44,604 nt of DNA from Candidatus Ornithospirochaeta stercoravium. GTDB lineage: Bacteria > Spirochaetota > Spirochaetia > Sphaerochaetales > Sphaerochaetaceae. The position numbers and the translations under genes are program-made. Below the pieces are notes generated by a model. It searched no databases. It saw nothing but the letters and a program-made list of their open reading frames with translations, and was not told the origin of the DNA. Position 1 is the first letter of the stretch. The number at the start of each line of letters is the position of its first letter. Shown one piece after another: positions 29,088 to 42,288 of the stretch. Location of the stretch: the NCBI GenBank assembly GCA_017694915.1, contig JADIMF010000073.1, positions 1 through 44,604 on the forward strand, given 5' to 3'.

Positions 29088-29160
29088 GGTGGAAGTAGTT
29101 CAGCGGTAGAGCGGCAGATTGTGGATCTGCTTGTCGAGGGTTCGATCCCCTTCTTCCACC
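29088..29160 (+). tRNA. tRNA-His (GTG)
   Basis: Full cloverleaf with acceptor GTGGAAG/CTTCCAC, an extra 5' G (G-1) facing discriminator C, anticodon loop TTGTGGA, and T-loop GTTCGATCC. The extra G-C pair is the tRNA-His hallmark. The 3' CCA is not fully encoded. Confidence 0.96.
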
Positions 29161-29183
29161 CAAGCTACCTCCATTGGAGGAAC

Positions 29184-29258
29184 GCGCTCTTAGCTCAGTC
29201 TGGATAGAGCGTCGGACTTCGAATCCGCAGGTCGCAGGTTCGAGTCCTGCAGGGCGCA
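29184..29258 (+). tRNA. tRNA-Arg (TCG)
   Basis: Acceptor GCGCTCT/AGGGCGC, anticodon loop CTTCGAA with anticodon TCG at 29219-29221, T-arm GCAGG-TTCGAGT-CCTGC. The first anticodon-stem pair is a T-C mismatch. Reads CGA-type arginine codons. Confidence 0.92.
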
Positions 29259-29267
29259 GCAATTTAT

Positions 29268-29340
29268 GGGCCGCTAGCTCAGCTGGTAGAGCAGCAGACT
29301 CTTAATCTGCGGGTCAAAGGTTCGATCCCTTTGCGGCTCA
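29268..29340 (+). tRNA. tRNA-Lys (CTT)
   Basis: Acceptor GGGCCGC/GCGGCTC (one wobble), anticodon stem GCAGA/TCTGC, anticodon CTT at 29301-29303, T-arm AAAGG-TTCGATC-CCTTT. Confidence 0.96.
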
Positions 29341-29347
29341 TCTCACC

Positions 29348-29427
29348 GCGAGAGTGGTGAAACTGGTATACACGCTAGTCTTAGGAACTAGTACTTCGGT
29401 GTGTGGGTTCGAGTCCCACCTCTCGCA
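29348..29427 (+). tRNA. tRNA-Leu (TAG)
   Basis: Acceptor GCGAGAG/CTCTCGC, anticodon stem CTAGT/ACTAG with anticodon TAG at 29382-29384. A short extra arm (TACTTCGGTGT) lies before the T-arm, a feature of class II tRNAs. Confidence 0.94.
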
Positions 29428-29456
29428 TACAGCCCAGACTAGAGGGTACACAATTT

Positions 29457-29528
29457 GCGGGAATAGCTCAGTGGTAGAGCTCCACCTTGCCAAGGTGGAT
29501 GTCGCGGGTTCAAGTCCCGTTTCCCGCT
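29457..29528 (+). tRNA. tRNA-Gly (GCC)
   Basis: Acceptor GCGGGAA/TTCCCGC, anticodon stem CCACC/GGTGG, loop TTGCCAA with anticodon GCC at 29489-29491. Last tRNA of the cluster, directly before a strong terminator. Confidence 0.96.
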
Positions 29529-29530
29529 CT

Positions 29531-37319: not shown

Positions 37320-37328
37320 TTTAACGAT

Positions 37329-37401
37329 TGGGAAGTCGCCAAGTGGTCAAGGCACCGGTTTTTGATACCGGCATTCGGTGGTTCGAGTCCACCCTTCCCA
37401 G
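37329..37401 (+). tRNA. tRNA-Gln (TTG)
   Basis: Acceptor TGGGAAG/CTTCCCA, anticodon stem CCGGT/ACCGG, loop TTTTGAT with anticodon TTG at 37362-37364, T-arm GGTGG-TTCGAGT-CCACC. Confidence 0.96.
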
Positions 37402-37430
37402 TTGCATGCTTTTGTTTCTTTCATTATTAT
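37402..37430 (+). promoter_or_regulatory. Predicted promoter of the rplY-pth-tilS operon
   Basis: TTGCAT, 17-nt spacer, TATTAT, starting at the base after the tRNA-Gln discriminator. The 66-nt leader contains a GTGC-TTCG-GCAC hairpin (37440-37451) and ATCGG...CCGAT, which could end the tRNA transcript or act in leader control. Confidence 0.55.
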
Positions 37431-38677: not shown

Positions 38678-39935
38678 CGGAGTCATTATTCCGGAGGGAA
38701 AGCTGCTTGTCGCTTTCTCTGGCGGTTCTGATTCTCTTTTCCTGCTGTCCGTATTATCTGAAGCGGCAGGAGATAGAACTGAAGCTGTCTATGTCAACCA
38801 TCATCTCAGACCAGAAACAGAGCTCAGAGAGGAAATTGAGCTCAATATAAGAAATGCAGAAAGACTTAATATTCCTCTCACGATAATTAACGTCCCTGAA
38901 GGTGAGATAACAAAACTCGCAAAGGAAAAGGACTGCGGTGTTGAAGCTGCAGCGAGGGAAGTGCGATACAGACTCCTCAGGGAAAAAGCTGATAATGAGC
39001 ATTTCGACTGGATACTTACCGCACACCATAGAGAAGATCAGGCAGAAACAGTCCTGATGCGTATCCTCTCAGGATCTCCATTCACTTCATATCAGGGGAT
39101 AAGAAGAGAAGACGGAAAGATATTCCGTCCGCTTCTCTCCGTTCCGAAGAGTGAGATAATGGATTACCTCCAGCTGAGAAAGCTTGAATACTCAGAAGAT
39201 TCAACGAACAGCGATACGGATTATCTCCGGAATGATATCAGGCATAATATAATGCCGCTCATCTCGGATACTGAAAGGGATATTCTTTCCCGCATTGCGG
39301 AGAATACAGAGGCATTCAGAAACAGGATCCCATCTATAAAGATATCCGATAGGTATTTCTATAAGACACTGGATAGGAATGAATTCATCGGAGCCTTTCC
39401 GTTTCAGAAAGAAGAAGCTGTTTATTCTGTTCTTTCATCATTCGGTGAGAAGAAGAACCGTGTCTCACGCTCTCTGATTGATGATGTATGCAGTAAGGTG
39501 GAAGAGGGTAAGGGGCGTATCATTATTTCTCCTGCAGTTTTCTTCTTTACTTCAGATGAGATCAGGATCTATCCATCAATCAGTGATTTCGTAACGCTTT
39601 TCGAGAAAGATGAAGCGCGGTATAGAAATATCCTGCTTGGAGTAACTCCTCATCATGATAATCTTACTCTCAGAATAGACACTTCAAAACTTGTACCTCC
39701 TGTAATCCTCAGGACATCAAGAGAAGGAGACAGGATAATCCTTAAAGACGGAGAGAGGAAAATCTCCGATATGGAGAAGAATCTTCGCATCCCTTATTCG
39801 CTTGTCCTTGAAGACAGAAGCGGTATAAAAGCTTTCTTCTCCCGCTTTCTTGGAGGAAGAGACAGGCTTTCGCTTGATATGCTTGGCGAAGATGAAAACC
39901 CGGAATATTTCTCGGTACGTTCACTCAGCAGATGA
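38646..39935 (+). CDS. tilS: tRNA(Ile)-lysidine synthase
   Basis: Modifies C34 of the AUA-reading tRNA-Ile to lysidine. About 429 residues. The PP-loop SGGSDS lies at 25-30, followed by NHHLRPE, GVEAAAREVRY and TAHHREDQAETVLMR, all typical of TilS. The region RLSRSLIDDV through the end covers the TilS substrate-binding and C-terminal domains (RTSREGDRI, GIKAFFSRF). The start is not an ATG in my reading: TTG at 38646 has GGAGGAG 5 nt upstream; an ATG at 38631 lacks an RBS. It overlaps pth by 32 nt and its 3' end overlaps the convergent interrupted gene by 11 nt. Confidence 0.92.
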   Translation: MKALSSGRIPDGVIIPEGKLLVAFSGGSDSLFLLSVLSEAAGDRTEAVYVNHHLRPETELREEIELNIRNAERLNIPLTIINVPEGEITKLAKEKDCGVEAAAREVRYRLLREKADNEHFDWILTAHHREDQAETVLMRILSGSPFTSYQGIRREDGKIFRPLLSVPKSEIMDYLQLRKLEYSEDSTNSDTDYLRNDIRHNIMPLISDTERDILSRIAENTEAFRNRIPSIKISDRYFYKTLDRNEFIGAFPFQKEEAVYSVLSSFGEKKNRVSRSLIDDVCSKVEEGKGRIIISPAVFFFTSDEIRIYPSISDFVTLFEKDEARYRNILLGVTPHHDNLTLRIDTSKLVPPVILRTSREGDRIILKDGERKISDMEKNLRIPYSLVLEDRSGIKAFFSRFLGGRDRLSLDMLGEDENPEYFSVRSLSR

Positions 39936-40380
39936 AATGCACAGGAAACCCTCCCTGCATTGTACCTGGGAGTGGAATCATTCCATTGCGGTTGATGATA
40001 ATTTCCTTTGTTTTATCATCGAAAGATGATTGTAGATACTTAAGAAGTGTTTCCGGGTTGAATTCCTTTGAGAATGCTGTTCCGTTGTTTGCGGCAGCAA
40101 GGAGGATATGTGTACCGCCGTGCGTGATTACAGCATGCTTTTTCACAATCTTCCCTGCAAATGCGTCGATTTCATCCAGAACATCCTTTGCAAGTTTTTC
40201 CTTGTCGTACTCTTCTGTAATGTCGACATCGTAATCAATCCAGAGCTTGCGGGAGTAAGTGTTCTGGATAATCGTGTACCAGAGCCCATGCAGATTTCTT
40301 ATGTTTCCCAATGCATGTGCAATATCATTATGACCTGTTATAGCATGAGACATTATTTCTCTATCAATTTCAGCCATAAC
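39925..40380 (-). pseudogene. 3' part of a gene interrupted by the IscB element (AEP-like motifs)
   Basis: Downstream 151 codons plus stop of a gene whose first 114 codons lie at 41947-42288. Joined at the element ends, the two parts form an uninterrupted 265-codon ORF (342 + 456 nt, both multiples of three). It contains KLWIDYDVD, like the hhDhD metal motif of archaeo-eukaryotic primase folds, and AVITHGGTHILL, like their second (sxH) motif, then a terminal IPLPGTMQGGFPVHF. I do not recognise a named family; the primase-fold idea is inference from two motifs. It might still be translated alone from its internal ATG at 40377. Confidence 0.65.
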
Positions 40381-40398
40381 GTGTAGCCAAAGGGAACT

Positions 40399-40414
40399 CC
40401 TACCCTTGGGTAGG
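40399..40414. repeat. Right-end hairpin of the IscB element
   Basis: CCTACCC-TT-GGGTAGG on the plus strand, a perfect 7-bp inverted repeat. The iscB stop codon (TAG on the minus strand) lies inside one arm. Its place 18 bp inside the inferred right end fits the subterminal hairpins recognised by IS605-type transposases. Confidence 0.65.
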
Positions 40415-41647
40415 GGCGGAATTTGGTATCCTCCTTGTGTAGATTCTTGTATTTGGATGTTCCAGCAATCTTACTTTCTTCATGGATATATATTTATCCA
40501 ATGAATTGTCAGAATATCTGATATTCAGTCTTCCATCAGATTTACGAGCCGTAACAGTTCCTTCCTTTCCGTTGTAAAGAACCTTGTCGGATAGTTTGAA
40601 TCCTTTTACGAAACGCGGAGCCTGATTAGCTTGGCGTTTACCACCTTTTCTTAGCTTCTCCTTATGAAGCTTGCGATTGTGCGATCTAACCTTTCTGATA
40701 TCATATACAACATCTGTACGGATAGCTTCAGTGTTTCCTGCAATACAGAAGGCATCAATATGATGATCCTTTTCCAATCTGAGTTCGTTTCTCGTCCAAT
40801 CTGTCAGGTATCCGTAAGTATTCGATACATCGGAGTATCTGGCAGATAGCCTATCAAGAAGAAACCATCGCATCGTGTTCATCGCTGTCATTGCCTTGAA
40901 TGAAGTGAGATCGGGTTTCCCTGTATGGAGCTTTATCTTTCCGTCATGATAGTCTGTATGGCATTCATGGCAAAGCGTAATGAGATTTCCTGGGCGATCA
41001 GAACCTCCCTTGCTGCGTGGTCTTCTATGATGGACCTCAAGTTCTTTCTTTGAACCACAGTTGCGGCATTTGTATCCATCCCGGGCCTTCACGTAACGTT
41101 TCGTATTCTTATAGCCCTTCGTTTCTCCGTTCAGGTACTCCTTGCCTTCAATCTCAGGGTATTTCGCCTTCTGGATATCAAAGGAAGCGGTCTCGACGAT
41201 TATCTTCGAAATCGGGAGAATCTTATAGACATCCGCAATTACGCTCTCATGGGTGCGGATTCCGCATTCCATTGTAGGGGTAAGCCAGCCTTCCGGACGT
41301 TTCCTGTTGCTGAACCGGGGCGCTCTGTATCTTGTCTTCCTTTTTCTTCTGTCTGAACGAAGTGAACGCCTCTCAACCATAAGCTCATGTACGTCTGTTC
41401 TTGTTTTAACAACGGCACTGTAAAGCTCTTCCTTTTCCGTTGAAGCGGAAAGGCCGATATGGGCATGGCCAGCGTCTACGCCAAGGGTTACAGGCTGTAC
41501 ATTCTCTGTTGAGTCGTTAGTGAGCCTGATGGTGTAAGGCGTCCTTTTTACGACCTTGGCTTCCTTGGCTTCGATAAGATGCCTTGCCCTGCATGGGGAA
41601 GTCGGCATGAGGGGGTTCCCGTTTTTCGATTGTACGTATACCTTCAT
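40400..41647 (-). CDS. iscB: IscB RNA-guided endonuclease
   Basis: OMEGA-system nuclease, ancestor of Cas9, that uses an omega RNA to cut DNA. 415 residues. In order: PLMP domain (NPLMPTSPCRARHLIEAKEA, residues 11-30), RuvC-I with Asp58 (TLGVDAGHAHIGLS), an Arg-rich bridge helix (VERRSLRSDRRKRKTRYR), RuvC-II with Glu152 (KIIVETASFD), HNH with a CxxC pair and catalytic His207 and Asn221 (YKCRNCGS...EVHHRRPRSKGGSD...NLITLCHECH), RuvC-III with His295 and Asp298 (KDHHIDAFCIAG), and a C-terminal target-interaction region with a GTVTARKSDGRLNIRYSD strand pair. All catalytic residues are intact, so both nuclease sites should work. Start MKVYVQSKNG with GGAG 6 nt upstream; an earlier in-frame ATG lacks a ribosome-binding site. 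Confidence 0.95.
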   Translation of the reverse strand: MKVYVQSKNGNPLMPTSPCRARHLIEAKEAKVVKRTPYTIRLTNDSTENVQPVTLGVDAGHAHIGLSASTEKEELYSAVVKTRTDVHELMVERRSLRSDRRKRKTRYRAPRFSNRKRPEGWLTPTMECGIRTHESVIADVYKILPISKIIVETASFDIQKAKYPEIEGKEYLNGETKGYKNTKRYVKARDGYKCRNCGSKKELEVHHRRPRSKGGSDRPGNLITLCHECHTDYHDGKIKLHTGKPDLTSFKAMTAMNTMRWFLLDRLSARYSDVSNTYGYLTDWTRNELRLEKDHHIDAFCIAGNTEAIRTDVVYDIRKVRSHNRKLHKEKLRKGGKRQANQAPRFVKGFKLSDKVLYNGKEGTVTARKSDGRLNIRYSDNSLDKYISMKKVRLLEHPNTRIYTRRIPNSAPTQG

Positions 41648-41962
41648 GTTTCTCCAATGCGTATACAATCGCCTCTTAGAAGGCCTCCCTATACGCTGGG
41701 GTCACGGGGTCTTCCTCCCCGTCGTCCTTCGCCAATGTTATCGCGGGTTATGTATGCCGGCAGTACTGTTCCTACCCATCAGAACTGTTTAACTGCAGGC
41801 CGTAGAGCAGTGGACTAGGACGTTGGATTTTTGAATCCTTTTTATATCCACTGGTACCTATATCTTCCGCGATAACGTAGGTTTCAAAGACCTTAGGCTA
41901 GTCACCAAGGGCACAAGCCCCTAAGCTTGCTTAGCGGGTTGGTGACCTTGCTTTTCATTGAT
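41648..41962 (-). ncRNA. IscB omega RNA (about 299-nt scaffold plus 5' guide)
   Basis: The non-coding stretch between the element's left end and iscB is densely structured on the minus strand. A 10-bp long-range pairing GTTATCGCGG (41867-41876) with CCGCGATAAC (41737-41746) encloses CAGTGGA/TCCACTG (41808-41814/41847-41853) with an inner GGATT/AATCC hairpin (41825-41838). After it come ACGGGG/CCCCGT (41704-41722) and GCGTATA/TATACGC (41659-41696) with inner GCCT/AGGC. The 5' end is the three-way structure at 41901-41946. In characterised IscB systems the guide is the 5' end of this RNA, read from host DNA; here 16 nt would be minus-strand ATCAATGAAAAGCAAG (41947-41962). Guide length is assumed from OgeuIscB. 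Confidence 0.82.
41901..41946 (-). other. Left-end three-way hairpin junction of the IscB element
   Basis: Minus strand: GTCACCAA pairs perfectly with TTGGTGAC, enclosing two hairpins, CTAAGC-AA-GCTTAG and GGGC-TTGT-GCCC. It begins at the inferred element boundary, so it can be both the transposon end and the first structural module of the omega RNA. Confidence 0.7.
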
Positions 41963-42288
41963 TCGTATGCCGCAATGGAATCCGAAAGATAGATATTTGC
42001 ATAGAATACTTTTGCTTCATCAGGAATGGGCAGTCCTTCTTCATCTGTATAACCATTCTTTTCAGTGAATCGATACAGACCTGCAAGATACCTGTCGAAA
42101 TCCCTTGTCCTGATGATATCTCTGTCGAGCATCTGCGGTCTTTTCCCAAGGTTTGTATTCGTTCCTTCCGGAAGATACTTCTTCCGTGCCGCTATCGAGA
42201 TGAATGCTGTCTCATATGTTTCCCAATATGAGGGCAGTATAATGTCAAAGAATTTCCTTACTTCGTTTTCGTTATGAATAAGCTTCAT
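41947..42288 (-). pseudogene. 5' part of the gene interrupted by the IscB element
   Basis: First 114 codons, from ATG with GGGGAG 8 nt upstream (MKLIHNENEVRKFFDIILPS), through ISIAARKKYLPEGT and DIIRTRDFDRYLAGLYRF, to AAYESMKSK, where the element begins. Reading on into the element adds a short junk tail ending at 41902. The continuation VMAEIDREIMSHAITGH lies at 40380 and below. A TAATAT with TTACAA 16 nt upstream could be the promoter; transcription from it would run into the element in the sense direction and make the guide-scaffold RNA. Unknown function. Confidence 0.7.

What the first reader, a model, noticed from the sequence alone, without database searches (positions are those of the whole stretch)
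40381..41946. Intact IscB/omega-RNA element whose removal restores a host gene in frame
The flanking minus-strand ORFs (41947-42288, 114 codons; 39925-40380, 151 codons plus stop) join without frameshift to one 265-codon ORF when 40381-41946 is removed. This defines the element at near base resolution from one genome. IscB is catalytically complete (Asp58, Glu152, His207, Asn221, His295, Asp298) at only 415 residues, so this is a compact, probably active OMEGA system in what looks like a spirochaete.
Basis: partly seen in the sequence, partly recalled or inferred. Interest (0 to 1): 0.9.

Follow-up and report, generated by a model that had tools for sequence, protein, structure and literature searches.

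The report
IscB element with portable start-signal end
A small mobile DNA element that encodes an RNA-guided DNA cutter related to Cas9 has split a gene in a gut spirochaete; its relatives often land exactly on the start codons of host genes and carry a ribosome-binding-like sequence at that end, which may explain how they avoid killing the genes they hit.

Summary
An IscB/omega-RNA (HEARO) element interrupts a 264-codon gene. Its left end is 41946, exactly position 1 of Rfam HEARO. IscB is a normal family member with the listed catalytic residues; "active" is untested.

Of 43 elements, 29 are start-like against 8% of ATGR sites in the same flanks (P about 1e-21). A second set of viral contigs shows a weaker but significant bias.

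The right end has a conserved layout: AAGGAGG, about 3 nt, two-tier hairpin, 7-9 nt, ATGR. Some IscB stop codons overlap the host start. I infer that this end replaces the ribosome-binding site it displaces; this is not shown. The window copy is an exception: it hit an internal Met codon and split the gene.

The element is a known kind. The start-codon and replacement-RBS pattern may be new, but the key papers were not readable here.

The parts
40378..41946 (-). Whole IscB/omega-RNA element, 1569 bp (corrected right end)
   Evidence: Left end = RF02033 position 1; right end from gapless orthologues and sibling elements
41721..41946 (-). HEARO / omega-RNA scaffold
   Evidence: RF02033, 119.7 bits, 1-211 of 211
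41947..41966 (-). Presumed guide: host flank directly 5' of the scaffold (AATCAATGAAAAGCAAG...); the exact guide length is inferred from known IscBs
   Evidence: Sharp scaffold boundary with unique flanks in 34 family copies
40400..41647 (-). iscB, 415 codons plus stop from the MKVYV start (an in-frame TTG start at 41668 would give 422 aa)
   Evidence: NF040563 335.5 bits; RRXRR, HNH; catalytic residues
40430..40436 (-). AAGGAGG, Shine-Dalgarno-like motif 59 nt before the junction, in the end of iscB
   Evidence: Sequence; position conserved across phyla
40387..40426 (-). Right-end two-tier hairpin: outer stem CCAAA/TTTGG, inner stem CCTACCC/GGGTAGG; the iscB stop codon lies in it
   Evidence: Fold and comparison of right ends
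40374..40377 (-). ATGG target-adjacent motif, in frame as Met115 of the host gene
   Evidence: ATG(A/G) at all sibling right ends with a recognised end
41947..42288 (-). Host gene, 5' part (114 codons)
   Evidence: Homologous to residues 1-114 of G109 orthologue
39925..40377 (-). Host gene, 3' part (150 codons plus stop); could be read from the junction ATG
   Evidence: Homologous to the rest of the orthologue

Best explanation
This is an IscB/omega-RNA (HEARO, OMEGA) mobile element without its own transposase. Shown here: both ends to the base, the empty site in relatives, an intact nuclease ORF and an intact guide-RNA scaffold. Inferred from established IscB biology: transcription coming in from the host gene makes an omega-RNA whose 5' guide is the upstream host flank; IscB with this RNA cuts alleles that still have guide + ATGG (the empty site), so repair copies the element back; a Y1 transposase acting in trans moves it as single-stranded DNA. 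Inferred from the comparison made here: the right end (AAGGAGG - 3 nt - hairpin - 7-9 nt - |ATGR) serves as a portable ribosome-binding site, helped in many copies by an IscB stop codon that overlaps or lies close to the host start codon, so that an element landing between a gene's Shine-Dalgarno sequence and its start codon leaves the gene translatable. In the window the element hit an internal ATGG, so the gene is split; its 150-codon 3' part could still be started from that Met.
For: Element and ends. Start-codon bias: 29/43 against 353/4378 background ATGR sites, P 1.3e-21; SD motif in the 5' flank, whose boundary is fixed by the RNA model or RNA end, 24/43 against 17%. Against start-plus-intergenic sites only: 25/28 against 43%, P 4.5e-7. 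Second set of viral contigs: SD 20/44 against 14.8%, start-like 10/33 against 6.7%. Host starts are true starts by family models and by empty sites at recG and recR. Right end: SD motif in 34/43 against 21.5% of body windows, read in different IscB frames, constant geometry with about 47 different outer stems. Short copies without IscB carry GGAG/GAGG directly before the ATG. Stop-start overlaps allow termination-reinitiation (PMC6728339). IsrB TAMs are NTG, NTGA, NTGG (PMC9581776).
Against: No expression or cleavage data. The hairpin is expected anyway at an IS200/IS605-type end, and 68% of shuffled right ends also form some helix there. SD-bearing ends and start-codon sites are not significantly associated over all copies (P 0.09). 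The viral set shows many copies not at starts. The window copy itself is inside a gene, with no SD in its 5' flank. No transposase in the element.
Confidence: 0.6

Rival explanations
1. Same element, but the start-codon bias is only survivorship plus an NTG-type target motif: insertions inside genes are lost, insertions that leave a transcribed guide are kept, and the right-end AAGGAGG and hairpin serve DNA transposition or IscB expression, not translation of the host gene.
For: IS200/IS605 elements need end hairpins (established knowledge); a TAM of NTG form matches start codons by itself (PMC9581776); 85% of the flanking DNA is coding; sense orientation would be favoured because the guide must be transcribed.
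Against: Start sites exceed the share expected among start plus intergenic ATGR (25/28 against 43%); the SD motif lies outside the hairpin at a constant distance and is kept in different reading frames; short copies without IscB have an SD directly before the ATG; SD-less RD49 copies are mostly not at starts.
Confidence: 0.35
2. The two flanking ORFs are separate genes and nothing was interrupted.
For: The 3' ORF begins with an ATG at the junction, as at relatives' sites where that ATG is a true gene start.
Against: Homologues in G109 and G110 run through the site as one open frame without a gap, and G085 also aligns through it.
Confidence: 0.02
3. A dead or domesticated remnant, kept for regulation of the split gene.
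For: Single copy in the assembly and no transposase in the element; no perfect second guide + TAM target in the genome.
Against: Full-length HEARO, intact IscB ORF with catalytic residues, intact right end and both halves of the host gene still open.
Confidence: 0.05

Closest known systems
HEARO RNA/ORF elements (Rfam RF02033) and IscB OMEGA systems (NCBIfam NF040563; OgeuIscB, PDB 7xht and 7utn)
   Same: Full-length HEARO scaffold, RuvC and HNH nuclease with PLMP-type start, guide taken from the 5' flank, 3' target-adjacent motif
   Different: No difference in kind. The start-codon siting and SD-bearing right end are features I have not seen described, but the founding papers were not readable here
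IsrB (OMEGA nickase), PMC9581776
   Same: Related nuclease and omega-RNA; TAMs NTG, NTGA, NTGG resemble the ATGR found here
   Different: IsrB lacks the HNH domain, which this protein has
IS200/IS605 insertion sequences with TnpA/TnpB
   Same: Hairpins near both ends, insertion next to a fixed short motif without target duplication, guide from the flank
   Different: No tnpA in this element; nuclease is IscB; the motif is 3' of the element as written
IStrons (group I intron plus insertion sequence), PMC4227781
   Same: A mobile element with a device that spares the host gene
   Different: IStrons splice out of the RNA; the device proposed here is a replacement ribosome-binding site

Membership tests
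IscB / OMEGA | IscB protein over curated cut-off | tested here: met
   NF040563 335.5 bits, cut-off 175
IscB / OMEGA | RuvC and HNH catalytic residues | tested here: met
IscB / OMEGA | HEARO / omega-RNA directly upstream, same strand | tested here: met
   RF02033 119.7 bits, 41946-41721 (-)
IscB / OMEGA | Guide-RNA-directed cleavage of DNA next to a TAM | not testable with these tools
   Only the natural junction ATGG is known
IS200/IS605-type mobile element | Precise insertion with an empty site in relatives | tested here: met
   Three orthologues gapless at 41946/40378
IS200/IS605-type mobile element | Hairpins at both ends | tested here: met
IS200/IS605-type mobile element | tnpA (Y1 transposase) inside the element | tested here: not met
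   None inside; two Y1 genes elsewhere in the genome, so only transposition in trans is possible
Start-codon-sited element with replacement RBS (group proposed here) | Insertion at a gene's start codon | tested here: not met
   Window copy is at internal Met115; 29 of 43 elements are start-like
Start-codon-sited element with replacement RBS (group proposed here) | SD - hairpin - ATGR right end | tested here: met
   AAGGAGG 40436-40430, hairpin 40426-40387, ATGG 40377-40374
Start-codon-sited element with replacement RBS (group proposed here) | Right end drives translation of the downstream gene | not testable with these tools
   Needs a reporter assay

The most novel reading that the evidence does not exclude
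HEARO/IscB elements are start-codon specialists. Their ATGR (NTG-type) target motif is the start codon itself, the guide is the displaced native leader with its Shine-Dalgarno sequence, and the right end is a hairpin-bridged or stop-start-coupled ribosome-binding site that puts the host gene back under translation. Lineages that lost the SD in that end, such as the copies in Erysipelotrichaceae RD49, would have lost the niche.
Probability: 0.4. Interest if true: 0.8.

Novelty: new member of a known kind. Interest (0 to 1): 0.55.

Why it matters
Taken alone, the window adds one more IscB/omega-RNA element with base-level ends and a clear empty site. The comparison around it offers a testable answer to how such elements persist in compact genomes: they insert where a portable translation signal can spare the gene, as IStrons do by splicing. 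It would give a reason why IscB and IsrB target motifs look like start codons, and it predicts that natural guides often contain Shine-Dalgarno sequences.

Tried and rejected
Pfam and NCBIfam name neither half of the host gene, and no phage record encodes it. An RNAalifold consensus on a MAFFT alignment of right ends failed because the stems were out of register. I replaced it by per-sequence folds with a shuffle control, which is weak because 68% of shuffles also form a helix. Element ends did not match the 31 TnpA loci I fetched, apart from a 15-nt match in one, so the mobilising transposase is unidentified. No empty site was found for the Finegoldia plasmid copy. No perfect guide + TAM target exists in the own genome; the nearest differ at two positions. 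Considered and rejected: two separate flanking genes (orthologues run through); protein-level conservation as the cause of AAGGAGG (it is read as ERR/TRR, KEV and in other frames, or lies after the stop). Weinberg 2009, Altae-Tran 2021, Kapitonov 2015 and Meers 2023 are not in the library.

Full report
What is there. It is followed by an IscB ORF (NF040563 335.5 bits; Pfam RRXRR and HNH) of 415 codons from the ATG at 41647. The assembly holds a single HEARO copy.

Ends and host gene. Homologues were found in four related genomes. The two closest related elements end in ...GGCGATTTT|ATGG and ...GGCGATTTC|ATGG, in line with ...CACGTT|ATGG here. The element is therefore 40378-41946 (1569 bp), and the interrupted gene had 264 codons. 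The frame argument alone could not tell 1566 from 1569. The host gene has no known family and is rare: 5 of 48 genomes of the genus including this one.

Relatives. HEARO hits occur in 16 of 101 family genomes. In a phylum sample of 393 genomes, all ten genomes with a hit belong to this family, which suggests entry by horizontal transfer (inference). The 5' boundary is sharp in every copy: unique flank, then GTCAA or GTCAC or a close variant. Recognised right ends abut ATG(A/G), and in cellular copies that ATG is usually a gene start. NCBIfam models place the first residues of the downstream proteins at the start of the model for RecR, LigA, RecG, NadD, AtpA, HflC, RsfS, a valine-pyruvate transaminase and an iron-transport ATPase. 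At recG, seven related genomes align colinearly across the junction; six have ATG exactly there and one is shifted by a base in the alignment. At recR, five of six aligned relatives have ATG at the junction and the sixth has GTG. Several sites are operon junctions with overlapping genes, read from the joined flanks.

Statistics. With hand-assigned ends, 29 of 43 copies are start-like (ORF of 80 codons or more downstream, in-frame stop within 40 codons upstream) against 8.1% of 4378 ATGR sites in the same flanks (P 1.3e-21). The 5' flank, whose boundary does not depend on the right end, has an SD motif at a suitable distance in 24/43 against 17% (P 1.1e-8). An automated end rule, derived from the same data, agreed with 31 of the 33 hand calls it could make. 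Against a survivorship null restricted to start-like or intergenic ATGR, cellular and plasmid copies score 25/28 against 43% (P 4.5e-7). In a second set of viral contigs, analysed with the rule fixed beforehand, the bias is weaker but present: SD in the 5' flank 20/44 against 14.8% (P 1.4e-6), start-like 10/33 against 6.7% (P 4.5e-5); with a 45-codon limit suited to short phage genes, 14/33 against 11.8% (P 1.1e-5). Copies are related to each other, so the P values overstate certainty.

Right-end anatomy. Across phyla: AAAGGAGG or AAGGAGG mostly 54-65 nt before the junction, about 3 nt, an outer stem, TTCCTC, an inner hairpin, GTTTCC, the other outer strand, 7-9 nt of mostly A/T-rich sequence, then ATGR. 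34/43 have an SD 5-mer there against 21.5% of body windows (P 1e-14). The motif is read as ERR/TRR, KEV and in other frames, or lies after the IscB stop, so it is conserved as nucleic acid. The IscB stop codon begins 2 nt before the ATG (TGATG) in 12 of the 52 right ends with a strong motif; such overlaps are known to allow termination-reinitiation (PMC6728339). HEARO-only copies of about 355-360 nt, without IscB, sit at hflC, rsfS and a transaminase gene and carry GGAG or GAGG directly before the ATG. Six copies in Erysipelotrichaceae RD49 lack the SD, and five of them are not at starts; over all copies this association is not significant (P 0.09).

Mechanism. Established knowledge supplies the RNA-guided part: upstream flank as guide, TAM downstream, cleavage of the empty site, retention by repair. 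IsrB relatives have NTG, NTGA or NTGG TAMs (PMC9581776), which match bacterial start codons. My inference is that the right end restores translation of the gene whose SD has been displaced. The alternative, survivorship with a DNA-only role for the right end, is not excluded. In the window the element is at internal Met115, with no SD in the flank, so there it splits the gene; the 3' part could be translated from that Met, which is untested.

Transposase. None in the element; two Y1 TnpA genes lie elsewhere in the genome, one beside a TnpB-like ORF. In G053 a TnpA broken into two frames follows IscB. Which enzyme moves the window element is unknown.

Novelty. The element is an ordinary IscB/HEARO member. 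I found no description of start-codon insertion or of a replacement ribosome-binding site in the papers that could be searched, but the founding papers were not held, so priority cannot be judged here.

Noticed in passing
L040 (G042:C10), L046 (G091:C65), L050 (G090:C15): HEARO-only elements of about 355-360 nt without IscB, MITE-like, at the start codons of hflC, rsfS and a transaminase gene, each with GGAG or GAGG just before the ATG.
   Followed up: partly
L130 and L131 (own genome G000:C85 and C133): Two Y1 transposase genes in the same genome, one beside a TnpB-like ORF; candidates to mobilise the IscB element in trans, but no shared ends were found.
   Followed up: partly
L097, L101, L102, L103, L106, L107 (Erysipelotrichaceae bacterium RD49): A genome with many IscB copies whose right ends lack the Shine-Dalgarno motif and mostly do not sit at start codons.
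   Followed up: partly
G091 (loci L045, L046, L065-L068): Eight HEARO matches in one same-genus genome, several at contig ends, as if the assembly breaks at recent repeats.
   Followed up: no
L044 (G053:C55): IscB followed in the same element by a Y1 TnpA split over two frames, the only IscB-TnpA pair seen in this family.
   Followed up: partly
window 29089-29529: Cluster of five tRNA genes (His, Arg, Lys, Leu, Gly) on the + strand; a Gln tRNA lies at 37328-37402.
   Followed up: no
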